DNA from: Margaritispora aquatica
Lineage: Eukaryota > Ascomycota > Leotiomycetes > Helotiales > Discinellaceae
NCBI GenBank assembly: GCA_007644065.1
Contig: VJWN01000003.1
Coordinates: 124,001 to 188,000, forward strand
Direction: 5' to 3'
Length of the DNA stretch: 64,000 bases
Numbering within the stretch: position 1 is the first letter of the stretch; the number at the start of each line of letters is the position of its first letter. Below the pieces are notes generated by a model. It was given only the letters and a program-made list of their open reading frames with translations, was not told where the DNA came from and did no database searches. Below, in pieces: positions 41,081-48,885 of the stretch. The position numbers and the translations under genes are program-made.

Positions 41081-42726
41081 TCAGCAGCAGTCATTACCAC
41101 CGTAAGCTCCATTCGCTTTGACACCATTGCCATTAGTATAGTTGCCAGTTGTACCGTTGCTCAGCGCACCGACCGACTTGCCGTTGAGACAGCCATTCAT
41201 CTTGCTGGCCTCTGAAGCAACACCATTAGCTCCATTGCTGACGTGACCATTGCTGCCATTCAGCCCACCAGCCTTTCTTGCTGCAGCCTCCATGATCTGT
41301 TCCTCCTCCATCTTGGCATTCTCTGTATACCCAGTATCAGATGAATCGACGTAAGCATCGAGTCCCTCCCCATTACGTGGATACTCTTTCATAATCTCCT
41401 TGTGGCGCTTTAGTGCAGCATTCATTTCCTCCGCACTGACATCGTTCAAGAACGTACATGTGCCAATGGGATTAGGCACAGCAGCACGGAGAAGACCATC
41501 ACGAGTCTTGAGAATGGCAGCCGTTGCATCAGCAAGAATCTTCTCGTTGAACTGATGATGATCCATAGAGAGACCAGCACGAGAAAACAAGTTCAGGAGA
41601 CGGCGGTGCTCTTGATCAGTGATGAGCTTGCGCTCGTTGGCGAGAGTGGCTGAGTAAGCCATATCAATTGAGATGGCGTGGCCGTGACGCAGAGGGGTTT
41701 CGGGAACCAGCTCGTGCAGTGGCGACCAGCTAGAAATAGTTAGCATGTGTATTTTGTCACACATGAGAAATGACTTACGTGTGACCATATGCAATAACAC
41801 GATCCAAACCAATCTCGTGAAGATTGGGGGTTTCCAGCTTCAACATCTCGTGTATGCCTTCACGGTTGATCTTGTCTGCAGCATCAATCAACTCCTGAGA
41901 CGAGCCATTGGCGCGCCCGAAGCTCTTCTCGATCAGTTCTTCGCAGTACTTGTCAAGGAGATTGAATGTATCCAGGTGGGAGCAAGTTGAAATCTTGATC
42001 AACTCTGCAAAGCCATTTCGAATCTGAGCGGTTGGCAGAGTGCGCAAAAATGTGAAATCTAGGAAAGTATGGATTGGGGCATGGTATGCACCAAGACGAT
42101 TTTTGTAGTTTCCATAATTCACTGCGACCTTGATCGATACAGAGGCGTCAATAAGACCGATGACAGTAGTTGGAACTCGAATGAAATTGGTGTTGCGTCG
42201 GTATGCAGCACATGCAAAACTGGGAAAGCCATTGGTTAGCATACATATCATCGACAAAAACAAACATTTAACCTACCCAGCAACATCAGTTACTAACCCG
42301 CCACCAACAACAAGCACAGGTTCCTACAGAGGAATTAGTGATAGTTATGAAAATACGGCTTGCAAAGGCCAGAGTACAAACTTTGCGATAGATTCCGAAC
42401 TCGTTCATGGAATCAACGATGCTTAACAGCGTTGGCATGGTCTTCGCTTTCTCGCCTATCTTCGTCTTGTGGATCTTGAGCTCGAGGTTGTAATGCTGAA
42501 AATACTTCTCCATTTGCTTGCCATAGACATTATAGATGTTCATGTCAGTTACAGCCAAGCACCTCTTCCATCGCTTGTAGCAATCTGCAAGGTTAGGATT
42601 CTCAACGTTGAAAACGCCATCGATGAATGTGAAATCATATTCAATCTTCTCATAACCCTCCACGTGGAAGCCAACGTGGCCCGAGGAGGTCTTCGTTTCC
42701 GAAACACTTGCTTTGAGATCTGACAT
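41081..42726 (-). CDS. sedoheptulose-7-phosphate cyclase, desmethyl-4-deoxygadusol synthase-like (mysA-like)
   Basis: Exons 42726-42382, 42323-42277, 42219-41779 and 41729-41081 give 493 residues in frame. It belongs to the dehydroquinate-synthase-like fold but lacks AroM context. Motifs are [20 protein letters not shown] (NAD-binding Gly-rich and metal region), [46 protein letters not shown] and [13 protein letters not shown] (metal-binding His). Fungal members of this clade make desmethyl-4-deoxygadusol from sedoheptulose 7-phosphate, the first mycosporine step. The nearby O-methyltransferase and ATP-grasp gene support this over 2-epi-5-epi-valiolone synthase. The last 60 residues are an Asn/Gly-rich tail ending in NDCC, not part of the catalytic fold. 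The third exon starts at GFACAAY after a GTAGGT donor. Confidence 0.88.
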
Positions 42727-44094
42727 GTTGGTAAAAGCTTGTAGGATGATTGTTATGCGTGAGTAAGGAAAGAAAGTCTGTAGCTAACCTCGATACTTCA
42801 GGATCTCCTGGGTTTTAAGCACAATATCAATCGACTTCTCGGAAAGCCTGCTTTACACCACAACCATAATGTTACGCCATCATCAGTGATGTGATTTCAC
42901 TAGTGTCTTGCAAGAAGAGGAGATTTCTCCTGCATCATTCGGTAAGTGCAATTCGAGTAGAATCGACGACGCTACACACAGGAACGGCAAAGCCCCACGT
43001 TCTGAACCTAAAGGTGAAAGTTGATCTAGAGCAGCAAGAAGAAGAGAATGAGAAAATGCACTTGGCCGATAGAAAATTGACGAATGTCGCACCGGCAGAT
43101 GCATAAGTCTCCCACCTGCACTCAGGGACCACTGAGTTGCCTGGATTCAAGCCACAGTGCCCTGGCATACAACAAGCTAAACAACACCACATTTCCAAAC
43201 AGCTAGGCATATGCGCATGGGAAACAGAAAACTCGATGCTTGCAGCTCAAGTTGGGCAGCATGAAATGCACTAAAATGCAACAGGGGTTCATGTTGATTT
43301 GAAAAGAGGATTGGATACTATGAACTGATCGACCGCCTTATGAGGGGCGTTTGTAGGTCTAAGAGAGACTAAGTGAAAGATCTCGGGTAATAGATTCATA
43401 TCTTGCAACATAGCGTTAGTGTTAATGTCAACAAGGTTCTTTGTCCCTTTGTATCGGGTGAAATGCAGCAGTTGAAACGCATGAGGACGATAAGTGTCAG
43501 AAGAATGACTTGAAGAAACATTGCACAACATAGGCCCTAAAGTATACAGAGGTTGTTGACACGCTTGTGTCATGGTTGATAGATAATGGTGAAGTTGGTT
43601 ATGCAGTACGACGTGAGGTCTAAAGAGAGAAGAGAGATACCCGAGATATGTCGACGTTGAGCTTTGCAGGACGAGAAGTGATGCGGGCGGCTGCCCCACA
43701 TCCAGAAGCGGCTTAGCCCGACACTTTCCATGTAGCTACTCACTTAGAGTGAGAGCGAGTTGCCACAACCAAGTTCCACAACATTCAACTCTATGACCGC
43801 AATATCGTTGCATCCTGCCGAGTCTCGATTTGCAAGTCAGGCAAGACATATTGTCTGGATCCCGAACACGAGAATCAGGATGGCGCCATATCCTGGGCTG
43901 TGCATTGTTGTGCCCAGCGATGTGCCAGCGATCAAGTTGCACGACTGAGGTGGAATATCCTTCATCGGCATTCTGGAGACGCTCAAATGGACCTGTGAAT
44001 GTCTTGTTGACGAACCAGTTCCCAATTGGTATGCCCAAGATTGAAAGACAAAGCAGAAAGCAACAAGTTGCACTGGAGCTGGACATAATCTCCA
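42727..44094. promoter_or_regulatory. divergent region between mysA-like and mysB-like genes
   Basis: 1.37 kb between divergent starts, so co-regulation of the first two pathway genes from here is possible. Minus-strand open frames at 43289-43699 and 43736-44236 have no family similarity, and the second overlaps the real mysB-like exons. No clear light-response motif can be assigned by eye. Confidence 0.4.
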
Positions 44095-44991
44095 ATGCCT
44101 TCCTTCGATCAACAAAAGGCGTACGCTGTGCAAGAAGAGACATTTGTGAGACTTTAGCAGCCTCATATGAAGATAGGCTAACAATGAAAATAGTTTGATG
44201 ATGGCCGCGAGGAGGAACTCGTCGAGTTCGTGACAACGCATCCGGACAAAGCCAACATACAAGGCTCTCCCATGAATGTTCTCAAAGCAATTGACGAGTT
44301 TGGTCGGACGAAGAAGTACTTGATGAATGTTGGGGATGACAAGGGCAAGATCGTGACAGATCTAATTCGCGAACGCAAACCACAGATAATGGTTGAACTG
44401 GGAGGATATTGTGGATACTCAACCATTCTCTTTGGTTCTACCGTTCGTGAAGTTGGTGGAGAGAAGTACTACTCTTGTGAGAGAAGTCCAAAATTTGCCA
44501 AGGTTATAGAGACTCTTGTAGAGTTTGCAGGGCTAAATGATACGGTGGAGGTTATCGTTGGACCAAGCGATGAGGGAATCAAGAAGCTTTGCGCTCGAGG
44601 AGTGAGGACGATCGATATGATGTTCTTGGACCATTACAAACCAGCATATACGACAGATTTGAAGCTGTGTGAACATCTCGGTTTGATCAAGGAGGGAACG
44701 GTTTTGGCGGCGGATAATGTCATTAGCCCTGGCAATCCACCATACCTTGAGTATGTGCGGAGTTCGGTTGCTGAGAAGCAATTGAAGTTGATGCAAGAGA
44801 GGGACGCGGACACGGCAAGCTTTGCAAATCGGACTTCTGCGCAGTATGGTCAGGTGGAAGTACTGAGCACCGAGATCAAAGGGAATCCTCATTTAGTATA
44901 TAAGAGCAAACTTGTAAATAGCTTTGAGCCCACCGGTGAACCAGATGGTGTTGAGATTACGAAGTGTTTGGGGGAGACAGATGGTACCTAG
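44095..44991 (+). CDS. class I O-methyltransferase, catechol-OMT type (mysB-like)
   Basis: Two exons, 44095-44145 and 44194-44991, give 282 residues. The 51-nt first exon (MPSFDQQKAYAVQEETF) was found by extending the family N-terminus upstream. The intron (donor GTGAGA, branch GCTAAC, acceptor AATAG) restores FFDDGREEELVEFV. SAM-binding motif I is MVELGGYCGYSTILFG. A Mg-binding region is FLDHYKPAY, and AADNV lies further on. COMT-like enzymes methylate vicinal hydroxyls. In mycosporine synthesis this step turns desmethyl-4-deoxygadusol into 4-deoxygadusol. The role is inferred from the divergent cyclase and the ATP-grasp gene downstream. No signal peptide. Confidence 0.87.
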
Positions 44992-45674
44992 ACGCATTTA
45001 GTTGGAGTAACGAATGATTTTTAAAACGATGAGAATAAAGAATGATCCCTTCACTCATGTTTCTTTGCTGCAAGCCTTTATTTCAATTCGCTTAATACAG
45101 CTTGATTTTTCTACAGTGACTGATTTCGTGTATGCAATCTCGCCGTGAATTATCACTATCCCGCCCAGATTTTCGAAGCTGCAAGATGATAGAGCTCGCC
45201 GATCCGGTACCGAAGTGAAGATTGCGCATTCCTAGGTTCGGCCTACCAAAACGCTGCCACTATATAGCAAATATCTTACAATTACCCCAATTACCACTTA
45301 GTTTTGTTTGTTTATGTGGATCAAGTCTACATCATCTTGTATTTTCATTATTTCATTCCAAAGCGAGAATTATAATGCGTGCTAGAGCTAGGTTCTGTTT
45401 CTTCGAATTGCTTTACCATTTGAATTCTCCTATTGAAATAATTTCTTGTCGCGAATGCAAGAGAATAAATACTAATAGGGACTATAGATACCAAGCTACA
45501 AGAACCTTTCACAATTTCCTTTAAATACAATATACAACTCTATCGTTAATTCACTCCTCATTCGATGCAAACCGATGAAGCCACGTGATTATCATGTATG
45601 AGCTTTATATAATCTAATAAATTTCCGGCTTGCAACTCGTCAGCCGGTTTATTCCCGGCGACAGGCGCAACAAC
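44992..45674. other. intergenic region upstream of tRNA
   Basis: AT-rich, no coding frame with similarity. It ends in a GC-richer patch (45626-45674) that directly flanks the tRNA gene. Confidence 0.5.
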
Positions 45675-45822
45675 GCCCGCTTGGCTGTAAGATAATACCT
45701 CATTATGTTACATCAACCCCAAGTACTAATAAATTCTACAGTAGTGGTACAGCGTCTCACTCGTATAGCTTAACAGCTTGTTGATCATGAGAAGACCGAC
45801 GGTTCGATTCCGTCAGTGGGCA
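45675..45822 (+). tRNA. tRNA-Thr(CGU) with two interruptions: 55-nt insert in the D arm and 21-nt canonical intron
   Basis: Acceptor GCCCGCT (45675-45681) pairs with AGTGGGC (45815-45821), with one G-U pair; discriminator A45822. TG, then D stem GCT (45684-45686) is broken by an insert at 45687-45741 and resumes as TAGTGGTAC plus AGC (45742-45753). Anticodon stem TCTCA/TGAGA (45755-45759, 45788-45792) encloses loop CTCGTA-A, anticodon CGT at 45762-45764. A 21-nt intron (45766-45786) sits after position 37, the canonical site. The variable loop is AGACC; the T arm GACGG-TTCGATT-CCGTC is perfect. The joined tRNA is 72 nt. The B box GGTTCGATTCC (45801-45811) is perfect. The A box TGGCT|TAGTGG is split by the insert. 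The insert starts GTAAGA, has TACTAAT at 45724-45730 and ends CTACAG, like a spliceosomal intron. Whether it is expressed is unknown. Confidence 0.78.
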
Positions 45823-45841
45823 GCTCAGAGTAAGGAGTAAC

Positions 45842-45846
45842 TTTTT
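45842..45846 (+). terminator. RNA polymerase III terminator
   Basis: TTTTT on the non-template strand, 20 nt after the tRNA 3' end, a usual distance for Pol III termination. Confidence 0.65.
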
Positions 45847-47265
45847 GCCAGTTGTGGTATTGTCTCATTAGTCCTTGGTCACATGATAGTCACATGATAG
45901 CCACGCGACCGTCACGTGAACGCAGATATGTGCTCACTGAAGCTCTAATGTAGCATTACTACGACCCGAATGTCCTACTTCAACACGCGGTCGTCGAGCC
46001 TTTATGCCATCTACCTAGGACATGGGAATCGAGGTGCTGTAATCCGGTTCGGGATCCTCTCGGTTACTTTCATAAGTTATCTATGAAAATCTCATAGTTT
46101 GTTGTCGGTCTTTATTGTTTTGGACGTGATAATTGCACTTTTTCTTCTTCGTTCAATATTGTTGAACGCCTTTCTCTTAATATAAATCGGTAGAACAATA
46201 TGTATTAGAGTTGTATCTTATTGGGTTAGGGTTTATTATACGGTAAGCTAGGTTTCGAACACCCAGGTACTTATTTACAATAGTCCCGACCTGCTGTATA
46301 TACATACATACCTAGGTCGCTACTCAAAACCTTGACCTCAGGCGGTAACTTACCTGCCGTTCGGTATAAGATCCCGATTAAAACCAATCTTACAGTACAG
46401 CGACTGGGCAGATATATCCCGCTTATCTGTCTTCTACAGCGATATAGAATGCGCGAAGATTCTGTGCATATCCGTCTTGCATATAGCATATAATACTCAT
46501 CTGGAAGTCGTCTGAACATCCCGTCCGCCAGTTGACGTTGCACACGATTGCCGTGGCCCCTGGCGACTTGCATTCATGTGGTAGGACAATATCAAAATCA
46601 ACGTCAATATTCAACATTAAGTGCATGCAAATGCATGTATTGGTGTATATGCTATCCTCTCTATGTTTTCTCCCCCTACTTTCCTATCTATTCTCTCTCT
46701 TGGTACACGTTGGCTTTCCCGACCTAATTGATGTACGATCTTGTGTTAGTTCATTCAGGAACGGCACTTGCATTTCCACTTCCACTTCCATTGCATCGCA
46801 TATCGCATATCGCATCTTCCTGCACCGCATCACACTGCATTGCATGTGAAAGTGAAAGTGGAAGTCCGAATACCGCTATACCGATCCAGTCAATTGACAA
46901 TCCACTAGTCCTAGTCCCTTTTACCCTTCAGGCTTCATCCCATCTATGACGTGGAGTACGCTGGAGAGAAAGACGATTCAGAAGTTCTTCGGAGGATGCT
47001 ACTTTCTGACTCTAGCTCATTCTTACCATTACCATTGCTGCTGCATTTGTTCTATTCTCGTCAATGCTTCACTTTCTTCTATACTCTCCCTATTAATTTC
47101 ATACTCAAGGCGCGTTAACATCTCAACTTTGGGAGTTCTTTATGCTTCAATTGCGTTACTTTTCCAATTTATCCCTACCATAGAAAACAATGGATATTTA
47201 AACACAAATCTATAAGGACAGTCCATCCTTAACACGGGAGGAGCTTCAACCACACCCGCGCCACC
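45847..47265. other. intergenic region between tRNA and mysC-like gene
   Basis: 1.4 kb with no supported gene. A CACATGATAG direct repeat lies near 45880-45900, and a CATATCGCAT-type repeat near 46795-46815. The last 100 bases, with CCACC before the ATG at 47266, are the leader of the mysC-like gene. Confidence 0.45.
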
Positions 47266-48885
47266 ATGCCTCTCAACAGCTCCTCACCAACGCGCCTCCA
47301 TCTCCTCCAAAATCTCTCCCTCATCGCCATCGCCATCAACCTGCTCCCACTCCTCACCTTCATAACCCTTACCTCCATTCTCCTCTCGCCCTTCACCAAC
47401 ATATCCAAGCACATCGCACATACACGGAAATGGCGGACCCTCTCCTCCGCAACTTTCAGACCACGCACTATCCTCGTCACGGGCGTAGGAATGTCCAAAG
47501 GTCTCTTTCTCGCCCGCACCTTCCACGCTTCGGGCCATAATGTCATCGGCGCCGACTTCGAGCCCCACTATATTCCTGTGTGCGGCCACTTCTCACGTGC
47601 CATCTCAAAGTTCTTCCGTGTCACGAAGCCAATTCCAGAGGAGAGCTCGCATGAGAAGGGCGAGGAGAAGGGTTCAGCGCAGTATGTGCAGGATCTCATC
47701 GACATCATCAAGCGCGAGAAAGTCGAGCTCTGGGTCTCATGCTCGGGAGTCGCGTCAGCACTCGATGACGGAGAGGCAGCCGAGGCAATTGAACGGGAAA
47801 CCAACTGTCGGGTCGTGCAATTTGGATACAGTCTCACGGAGACGCTTCATACAAAACACTCGTTCATCGCTCATACACGCAAAATCGGCCTGAATGTTCC
47901 ATCCACGCATCTCGTGACTTCAGAGACCGAAGCACATGTCGTGCTCTACCCGAGCAAAGATGCCAAACCTCGCTGCTCGCCGGGAACGCAATACATCATG
48001 AAGAGCGTCGGGCTTGATGACTCCATTCGCGCAGACATGACGCTCCTCCCACGACCGACACTCAAGGAAACGGGTGCGCACTTGAGACGCATGAATCCAA
48101 CTCCGTTCCGGCCATTCGTGCTGCAGCAGTATATCTCCGGATCAGAATACTGCACGCACTCCCTCATCATCAACGGCGTCGTGAAAGCGTTCGTGGCGTG
48201 CCCTTCAGCTGAACTGCTGATGCATTATACTCCTCTCCCTGCGTCCTCGGCGCTCTCGCAGGCTATGCTCTTATACACGAGGCTGTATGCTGAAAGAACA
48301 GAACCAAAAATGACAGGCCACTTCTCCATCGATTTCCTTGTCGAGGCCGGAGTGGCCGAGACAGCAGAGGGTACAGTCGGTGTGAGTGAGGATGAAGTCA
48401 AAGAGCTGATGGGCAAACTCTACCCCATTGAGTGCAATCCTCGTGCACACACAGCAATCGTCGCATTCCGCGACGTGATGGAAGACCTCTCAGCCGCTTA
48501 CCTTTCCGTCCTACCGGCACATGAGCCGAAAGGCATCTCCAACGGCCACCGTGCCGAAGCGCTCGTTGTGCCCAAACCAGGAATCCCAGGCACGTACTGG
48601 ATTGGTCATGATTTCGTCACCAAGGTTCTACTGCCTGTGCTGTGGCTGCTGAGAGGCAGAGATAGCGGTGGGATGGAGGTGGGTATGATGGAGGTCCTGC
48701 AACAATGGGTGGAGTTCCTGGAACATGTCCTTTGGTGGAGGGATGGCACGTGGGAGATTTGGGACCCATGGCCGTTGTGGGTGCTCTATGCGGTTTATTG
48801 GCCTGGTATGTTTGCCGTGGCGCTTTGGGAGCGAAGGTGGTGGAGTCGCTGCAATGTCAGTACGACGAAAATGTTTGGGTGTTAG
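47266..48885 (+). CDS. ATP-grasp ligase, mysC-like, with membrane segments
   Basis: Single exon, 539 residues; the ATG has the favourable context CCACCATGC. The N-terminus (about 13-42) is a long hydrophobic stretch (LSLIAIAINLLPLLTFI...). It is followed by RTILVTGVGMSKGLFLARTF, a pre-ATP-grasp Rossmann-like region. The ATP-grasp core follows, with YIMKSVGLDDSIRADM, RPFVLQQYISGSEYCTHSL and, near 360-400, FSIDFLVE and YPIECNPRAHTAI (metal-binding Glu and Asn). Two more hydrophobic segments lie near the C-terminus (VLLPVLWLLRG; LWVLYAVYWPGMFAVALW). In cyanobacteria MysC joins glycine to 4-deoxygadusol. The fungal product is usually a glutamine or glutaminol form, so the amino acid is open. It probably sits on the ER or another membrane. 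The stop overlaps a TTAGGG-like repeat. Confidence 0.85.
   Translation: MPLNSSSPTRLHLLQNLSLIAIAINLLPLLTFITLTSILLSPFTNISKHIAHTRKWRTLSSATFRPRTILVTGVGMSKGLFLARTFHASGHNVIGADFEPHYIPVCGHFSRAISKFFRVTKPIPEESSHEKGEEKGSAQYVQDLIDIIKREKVELWVSCSGVASALDDGEAAEAIERETNCRVVQFGYSLTETLHTKHSFIAHTRKIGLNVPSTHLVTSETEAHVVLYPSKDAKPRCSPGTQYIMKSVGLDDSIRADMTLLPRPTLKETGAHLRRMNPTPFRPFVLQQYISGSEYCTHSLIINGVVKAFVACPSAELLMHYTPLPASSALSQAMLLYTRLYAERTEPKMTGHFSIDFLVEAGVAETAEGTVGVSEDEVKELMGKLYPIECNPRAHTAIVAFRDVMEDLSAAYLSVLPAHEPKGISNGHRAEALVVPKPGIPGTYWIGHDFVTKVLLPVLWLLRGRDSGGMEVGMMEVLQQWVEFLEHVLWWRDGTWEIWDPWPLWVLYAVYWPGMFAVALWERRWWSRCNVSTTKMFGC

What the first reader, a model, noticed from the sequence alone, without database searches (positions are those of the whole stretch)
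45675..45822. tRNA-Thr(CGU) gene split twice: a spliceosomal-looking 55-nt insert in the D arm plus a canonical intron
With 45687-45741 and 45766-45786 removed, a 72-nt tRNA folds with all stems paired, conserved D-loop and T-loop residues and a perfect B box. The 21-nt piece is at the normal 37/38 site. The 55-nt piece is not. It starts GTAAGA, carries TACTAAT 12 nt before the end, and ends CTACAG, the signals of an mRNA intron rather than a bulge-helix-bulge tRNA intron. It splits the A box, so it should hinder Pol III unless the gene is transcribed otherwise. I know of no described spliceosomal intron in a nuclear tRNA of fungi. Either it is a newly gained intron in a live tRNA gene, or an insertion that killed it.
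Basis: partly seen in the sequence, partly recalled or inferred. Interest (0 to 1): 0.88.

Follow-up and report, generated by a model that had tools for sequence, protein, structure and literature searches.

The report
mRNA-type introns inside tRNA genes
In this fungus a threonine tRNA gene, and apparently three other tRNA genes, carry an extra intron that looks like those of messenger RNA, so the cell probably needs both of its splicing machines to make these tRNAs.

Summary
Removing 45687-45741 and 45766-45786 gives a 72-nt tRNA-Thr(CGU); with the 55-nt piece left in, ARAGORN and Rfam at its cut-off miss the gene. The piece has fungal spliceosomal-intron signals: GTAAGA, TACTAAT with its branch A 12 nt from the end, CAG. 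It lacks a bulge-helix-bulge at its ends. It is not alone: the same genome (42 Mb; helotialean by one protein search) holds Asp(GTC), Arg(TCT) and Arg(CCT) genes split by different 49-67-nt GT-AG inserts with CTAAY near the end; excision gives good cloverleaves. The Asp gene equals five uninterrupted paralogs outside the insert and the variable canonical intron. All four have a B box, a canonical intron and a T-run terminator. Two targeted searches found no second Thr(CGU) gene. Best reading: live Pol III genes spliced first by the spliceosome, then by the tRNA endonuclease. No RNA data were available, so splicing is inferred. Arg(CCT) is the weakest case. None of ten paper searches listed a nuclear tRNA gene with a spliceosomal intron.

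The parts
45675..45686 (+). tRNA-Thr(CGU) exon 1 (acceptor 5' strand, positions 1-12)
45687..45741 (+). 55-nt mRNA-type (GT-AG) intron in the D arm
   Evidence: GTAAGA at the 5' end, CTACAG at the 3' end
45724..45730 (+). branch-site motif TACTAAT, branch A at 45729, 12 nt from the intron end
45742..45765 (+). tRNA exon 2 (rest of D arm to anticodon loop position 37, anticodon CGT)
45766..45786 (+). 21-nt canonical tRNA intron at 37/38
   Evidence: ARAGORN draws the boundary one base later
45787..45822 (+). tRNA exon 3 (position 38, anticodon stem 3' strand, variable loop, T arm, acceptor 3' strand, A73)
45801..45811 (+). B box GGTTCGATTCC
45842..45846 (+). T5 run, likely Pol III terminator, 19 nt after the gene
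   Evidence: T5 runs of other tRNA genes lie at a median of 26 nt

Best explanation
This is a live nuclear tRNA-Thr(CGU) gene with two kinds of intron. RNA polymerase III transcribes it as one precursor. U1 and U2 recognise the GTAAGA and TACTAAT signals and the spliceosome removes the 55-nt D-arm intron in the nucleus. Only then can the RNA fold as a tRNA, have its ends trimmed, and have the 21-nt intron at 37/38 removed by the tRNA splicing endonuclease and ligase. The same design exists in at least two, probably three, other tRNA genes of this genome. Shown here: anatomy, restored cloverleaf, intron signals, recurrence, absence of the simplest bulge-helix-bulge at the cut sites, T-run terminators. 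Inferred: transcription by Pol III, excision by the spliceosome, order of events.
For: Restored tRNA-Thr(CGU). Asp(GTC), L082: 67-nt insert; outside it and the canonical intron, 37 + 35 nt are identical in all six Asp genes fetched, five of them uninterrupted. Arg(TCT), L083: 52-nt GTAAGT..TACTAAT..CAG insert in the D loop. Arg(CCT), L056: 49-nt GTTAGA..TACTAAC..TAG insert in the anticodon stem; excision turns an implausible Ser(AGA) without a long variable arm into Arg(CCT) with five Watson-Crick anticodon-stem pairs and a 14-nt canonical intron. Score gains: Thr 20.5 to 39.1, Asp 22.5 to 37.6, Arg(TCT) 23.9 to 38.4, Arg(CCT) only 35.7 to 38.4. In 47 kept tRNA-like genes (25 with an eligible GT-AG cut), the cut raised the score in 5: these four and L040, where a longer plain intron does as well. 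Five phospholipase D introns are 49-59 nt, three with GTAAG, two with CTAAY (that alignment forced GT and AG). No simple bulge-helix-bulge: 2, 1, 2, 2 of 4 central pairs. T5 runs at +19, +67, +18, +11; 37 of 42 other genes have T5 within 120 nt, median 26. The three U3 snoRNA genes found also appear to carry GT-AG introns (by eye).
Against: No RNA evidence of any kind. In Thr the insert splits the A box and the junction restores only 6 of 8 consensus bases. In the folded inserts of Thr and Asp the donor GTAAG is paired in a hairpin, which could hide it from U1 (z -2.2 and -1.3). Arg(CCT) has a weak donor (GTTAGA), a small score gain, and seven other cuts tie with it, one beats it. Asp and Arg(TCT) were found by searching for CTAAY, so their branch motif is not independent evidence; their GT-AG ends are. 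The decoy control is thin: only 22 of 47 genes had a decoy cut, and none existed in Thr, Asp or Arg(CCT). The tRNA census is incomplete, class II tRNAs were hardly testable, and no sister species could be compared. Both U6 genes found lack introns.
Confidence: 0.82

Rival explanations
1. Dead genes: an intron-like sequence inserted into tRNA genes and inactivated them; ACG and AGG codons are read by wobble (UGU, UCU) or by undetected copies.
For: No expression data; the Asp gene and the Arg(TCT) gene have uninterrupted relatives for the same codons. [quoted passage not shown]
Against: Two targeted searches found no intact Thr(CGU) copy; none for Arg(CCU) appeared in the incomplete census, but no targeted search was made for it. 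Arms, canonical introns, B boxes and terminators are intact in all four. An insertion that kills would not need GT...CTAAY...AG at its ends.
Confidence: 0.13
2. Ectopic introns removed by the tRNA splicing endonuclease, as in Cyanidioschyzon merolae or nucleomorphs.
For: D-arm introns of that class exist in some algae (PMC9602550 and PMC4090602, passages).
Against: No bulge-helix-bulge: central helix 2, 1, 2 and 2 of 4 pairs (a test of the simplest geometry only). Four of four have GT-AG ends and a branch motif.
Confidence: 0.03
3. Minimal or degenerate group I introns, like the 63-75-nt ones in Phialophora rRNA.
For: Size is similar (PMC3160393, passages); those occur in fungal structural RNA genes.
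Against: A group I 5' site follows a U paired as G-U (recalled; PMC3160393 passage gives the G-U pair); here the exons end T, G, T and C. Those small introns end in U (same passages); these end in AG. No RNA family match in the window at gathering threshold.
Confidence: 0.01
4. Assembly or sequencing artefact.
For: One assembly only.
Against: Four different inserts on three contigs (C1, C2, C23), all with intron signals at tRNA-consistent boundaries.
Confidence: 0.01

Closest known systems
Spliceosomal introns in fungal U3 snoRNA and U6 snRNA genes
   Same: Short GT-AG introns with a fungal branch site inside small structured RNAs; U6 is a Pol III transcript (abstract start of PMC10484740). 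PMC5832005 gives GTRWGT, RCTRAY, YAG and a branch-acceptor distance of 6-36 nt (section 3.2).
   Different: Those RNAs are not tRNAs. PMC5832005 (2017) states that U3 and U6 are so far the only small structured RNAs known to be often interrupted by an intron (passage).
Spliceosomal introns in nuclear rDNA of ascomycetes and lichen fungi
   Same: Ectopic mRNA-type introns of similar size (57 bp in Cladonia grayi) removed from Pol I transcripts, also in yeast (PMC8527467, passages).
   Different: Pol I rRNA, not Pol III tRNA; no second, tRNA-type intron.
Ectopic tRNA introns of Cyanidioschyzon merolae and nucleomorphs
   Same: tRNA genes with D-arm plus anticodon introns; in C. merolae the D-arm intron is supposed to go before the anticodon intron (PMC9602550 passages; PMC4090602 passages).
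   Different: C. merolae introns have bulge-helix-bulge structures; those of the Guillardia nucleomorph are 3-24 nt. No GT-AG or branch motif is described in the passages I saw.
Introner-like elements of fungi
   Same: A route by which fungal genomes gain spliceosomal introns (PMC4457414, search listing; PMC9860276, listing, and a term search that found no mention of tRNA or Leotiomycetes).
   Different: Introners are repeated; the Thr insert (inside the 301-nt query) and the Asp insert match nothing else in this genome. The four inserts are not clearly alike (z -0.4 to 2.2, the highest for Thr and Arg(TCT)).

Membership tests
U2-type spliceosomal intron | GT...AG ends | tested here: met
   4 of 4 inserts; boundaries fit the tRNA closely in Thr, Asp and Arg(TCT); in Arg(CCT) other cuts score as well
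U2-type spliceosomal intron | fungal 5' splice site GTRWGT (U3 survey, PMC5832005) | tested here: inconclusive
   GTAAGA, GTAAGC, GTAAGT, GTTAGA: one full match, two that differ at the last base, one that differs at two bases
U2-type spliceosomal intron | branch site RCTRAY, 6-36 nt before the acceptor | tested here: met
   ACTAAT, GCTAAT, ACTAAT, ACTAAC; branch A 12, 12, 11 and 10 nt from the end. Asp and Arg(TCT) were found by a CTAAY search, so for them this is built in
U2-type spliceosomal intron | length like local mRNA introns | tested here: met
   55, 67, 52, 49 nt; five PLD introns 49-59 nt; the Asp insert is longer than these five
U2-type spliceosomal intron | excised by the spliceosome as a lariat | not testable with these tools
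   no RNA data
functional nuclear tRNA gene | cloverleaf with conserved residues after excision | tested here: met
   scores 37.6-39.1, within the range of uninterrupted genes of the genome
functional nuclear tRNA gene | A box, B box and T-run terminator | tested here: inconclusive
   B box and T5 present in 4 of 4; A box across the junction 6/8 (Thr), 8/8 (Asp), 7/8 (Arg TCT); not split in Arg(CCT), whose insert is in the anticodon stem
bulge-helix-bulge tRNA intron | 4-bp central helix between intron nt 2-5 and exon nt 2-5 | tested here: not met
   2, 1, 2, 2 of 4 pairs
introner-like element | many similar copies in the genome | tested here: not met
   Thr and Asp inserts match only themselves; the two Arg inserts, under the 60-base minimum, were not searched

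The most novel reading that the evidence does not exclude
This fungal lineage has gained spliceosomal introns repeatedly and independently in Pol III tRNA genes, and some of its tRNAs (Thr-CGU and Arg-CCU, apparently from single genes) now depend on two splicing machineries acting in a fixed order, with the intron's own 5' splice site helping to rebuild the A box.
Probability: 0.55. Interest if true: 0.92.

Novelty: new variant of a known kind. Interest (0 to 1): 0.87.

Why it matters
tRNA introns and mRNA introns are treated as separate worlds with separate machines. A tRNA gene that needs both would show that the spliceosome can process Pol III tRNA precursors, would expose a class of tRNA genes that standard finders miss, and would give a clean system for how new spliceosomal introns arise: the Asp family offers one interrupted and five uninterrupted copies in one genome.

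Tried and rejected
Rejected readings: bulge-helix-bulge introns, small group I introns (size fits, ends do not), introners, chance. L052, L076, L078 and L084 gave no convincing GT-AG cut. By eye of the matched strings, the CTGAY branch search gave no new case (15 matches).

Control in full. Of 65 T-arm candidates I kept 47 by a rule that looked at the plain or the GT-AG score, not the decoy score. Among all 65, GT-AG cuts raised 6 (the four, L040, and L093 from 12.5 to 19.9) and decoys raised 5 (L083 23.9 to 26.8, L040 19.1 to 26.2, L052 14.3 to 35.9, and L030 and L054, which had no plain parse, to 15.9 and 11.8). The L052 gain is the same 70-nt cap: with a plain 83-nt intron it reaches 35.9. 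Mitochondrial loci and duplicate loci were left out before the scan.

The genome gave no file and has no relatives in the tools, so no sister species was compared. Rfam tRNA in the genome: 61 matches, 21 on contig C38, 40 elsewhere; only 62 of 1,722 candidates were scored, so the census is incomplete, and the window gene is not listed. An earlier count gave 23 and 38; 21 and 40 are right. My confidence fell from 0.84 to 0.82 on checking, because Arg(CCT) rests on isotype logic more than on score.

Full report
Check of the observation. The sequence at 45675-45822 is as described. ARAGORN finds tRNA-Thr(cgt) when the 55-nt piece is removed, with a 21-nt intron at 37/38, and nothing when it is left in. 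ARAGORN on the whole window and Rfam at gathering threshold find nothing; Rfam at a lax threshold gives a weak tRNA match anchored on the T arm (16.8 bits). A tRNA model built from 22 intron-bearing tRNAs of this genome hits the gene at 31.8 bits, starting inside the insert.

Precision of the boundary. I scored all excisions of 30-100 nt with a cloverleaf parser of my own. In Thr the exact GT-AG cut ranks 2 of 5,706, the first being the same cut shifted by one base. In Arg(TCT) it ties for first with 20 others of 5,964. In Asp three of 5,934 score better and 36, itself included, share its score. In these three the tRNA fixes the insert to a few bases, and GT and AG fall at that place. In Arg(CCT) one of 5,913 scores better and seven others tie, all read as anticodon AGA. 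There the GT-AG cut is preferred because it gives Arg(CCT), whereas AGA would be a serine tRNA without its long variable arm.

Recurrence. Rfam's lowest-scoring listed hit, C23:1168604-1168738, is read by ARAGORN as Ser(AGA) with a 60-nt intron. Removing GTTAGA...ATACTAACAGTTAATAG (49 nt) gives Arg(CCT) with a fully paired anticodon stem and a 14-nt canonical intron. A search for CTAAY upstream of a B box (16 matches each) pointed to two more: Asp(GTC) at C2 with a 67-nt GTAAGC...TGCTAAT...TAG insert, and Arg(TCT) at C1 with a 52-nt GTAAGT...TACTAAT...CAG insert. In all six Asp genes fetched, five of them uninterrupted, the 37-nt 5' part and the 35-nt 3' part are identical; only the insert and the 9-10-nt canonical intron differ. 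An earlier automated comparison of the last 45 nt reported four of five as different because it included that intron.

Control. Over 47 kept tRNA-like genes, 25 offered a GT-AG cut with a CTRAY motif; it raised the score in five: the four above and L040. L040 is explained without it. Reversed-motif decoys were available in 22 of 47 and raised two, to 27 at most. No decoy existed in Thr, Asp or Arg(CCT), so the control is thin; the counts for all 65 candidates are in Tried and rejected. Leu and Ser genes with long variable arms are largely outside this test.

Are they live? All four have T5 runs downstream (Thr +19, Asp +67, Arg(TCT) +18, Arg(CCT) +11); among 42 other genes 37 have one within 120 nt, median 26. 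The interrupted Asp gene keeps the trailer motif GAGTTCATA of its paralogs. No second Thr(CGU) was found by a 72-nt DNA search or by a pattern for its anticodon loop and B box (12 matches, of which by eye only the window gene reads as Thr-CGU). No targeted search was made for Arg(CCU). Thr(AGT) occurs twice and, by my reading of L042 and L044, Thr(TGT) twice. ACG (42) and AGG (20) codons occur among 3,537 codons of five window ORFs, so the tRNAs have work, though wobble could read them.

Mechanism. Inserts resemble the introns found by spliced alignment in the phospholipase D gene about 5 kb away: 49, 59, 50, 52 and 53 nt, with GTAAG donors in three of five and TACTAAT or CTAAC in two (GT and AG ends were required by the alignment). 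They do not form the simplest bulge-helix-bulge. The tRNA endonuclease is reported to touch the D arm and to place its cuts at a distance from the tRNA body (PMC4090602 passages), so the D-arm insert should leave first; in C. merolae the D-arm intron is supposed to leave first (PMC9602550 passages). The spliceosome can act on non-Pol II RNA: rDNA spliceosomal introns are removed from Pol I transcripts in a lichen fungus and in yeast (PMC8527467 passages). In this genome the three U3 genes found appear to carry a GT-AG intron near the 5' end, by my reading of the sequence (Rfam itself matched them end to end); the two U6 genes found do not. Against easy splicing, the GTAAG donor is paired in a predicted hairpin in the folded inserts of Thr and Asp.

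Promoter. The exon-intron junction keeps 8 of 8 A-box consensus bases in Asp, 7 of 8 in Arg(TCT), 6 of 8 in Thr. In Arg(CCT) the insert is in the anticodon stem. That the splice donor helps keep the A box is an idea, not a result.

Organism. One protein of the window, phospholipase D, is closest to helotialean fungi (Halenospora varia 88%, Oculimacula yallundae 86%).

Literature. Ten searches were made. In the titles and abstract starts listed, and in passages of ten papers, plus section 3.2 of one of them, I saw no nuclear tRNA gene with a spliceosomal intron; the term search of one of the ten returned no passage. PMC5832005 calls U3 and U6 the only small structured RNAs known to be often interrupted by an intron, as of 2017. 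A U6 intron survey (PMC4829304) is not held. Absence from this library is not proof of novelty.

Noticed in passing
L056 / G000:C23:1168604-1168738:-: Arg(CCT) gene with a 49-nt mRNA-type intron in the anticodon stem, read by ARAGORN as Ser(AGA).
   Followed up: yes
L040 (G000:C48:685604-685748) and L052 (G000:C12:788952-789105): tRNA-like genes alike in their 5' halves, with 72-83-nt introns at the anticodon loop and odd anticodons (TCA, TGC).
   Followed up: partly
L076 (C34:1642837) and L078 (C46:1506633): tRNA-like genes with a good T arm but no anticodon loop with T33 that I could see; the anticodon is unclear.
   Followed up: partly
L097, L098, L099 (U3 snoRNA): The three U3 genes found appear to carry a GT-AG intron near the 5' end (ATGTCGATTAATAC^GT...AG^TTCAAAG, by eye).
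   Followed up: partly
window 45687-45711 and L082 insert: In both folded inserts the GTAAG donor is the 5' arm of a small hairpin.
   Followed up: no
G000:C38 (42,582 bases): Contig with mitochondrial-type tRNAs whose tRNA cluster is repeated near both ends (about 5.3-7.4 kb and 39.0-41.1 kb), as if a circle was assembled with overlap.
   Followed up: no
window 41081-48885: A DHQ-synthase-like gene, an O-methyltransferase gene and a third ORF around the tRNA gene recall a mycosporine cluster; Pfam supports the first two only, the cluster name is recalled.
   Followed up: partly
G000, nuclear tRNA genes: 39 of 47 parsed tRNA-like genes have a canonical intron in the best plain parse; it often differs between copies of one isoacceptor.
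   Followed up: no
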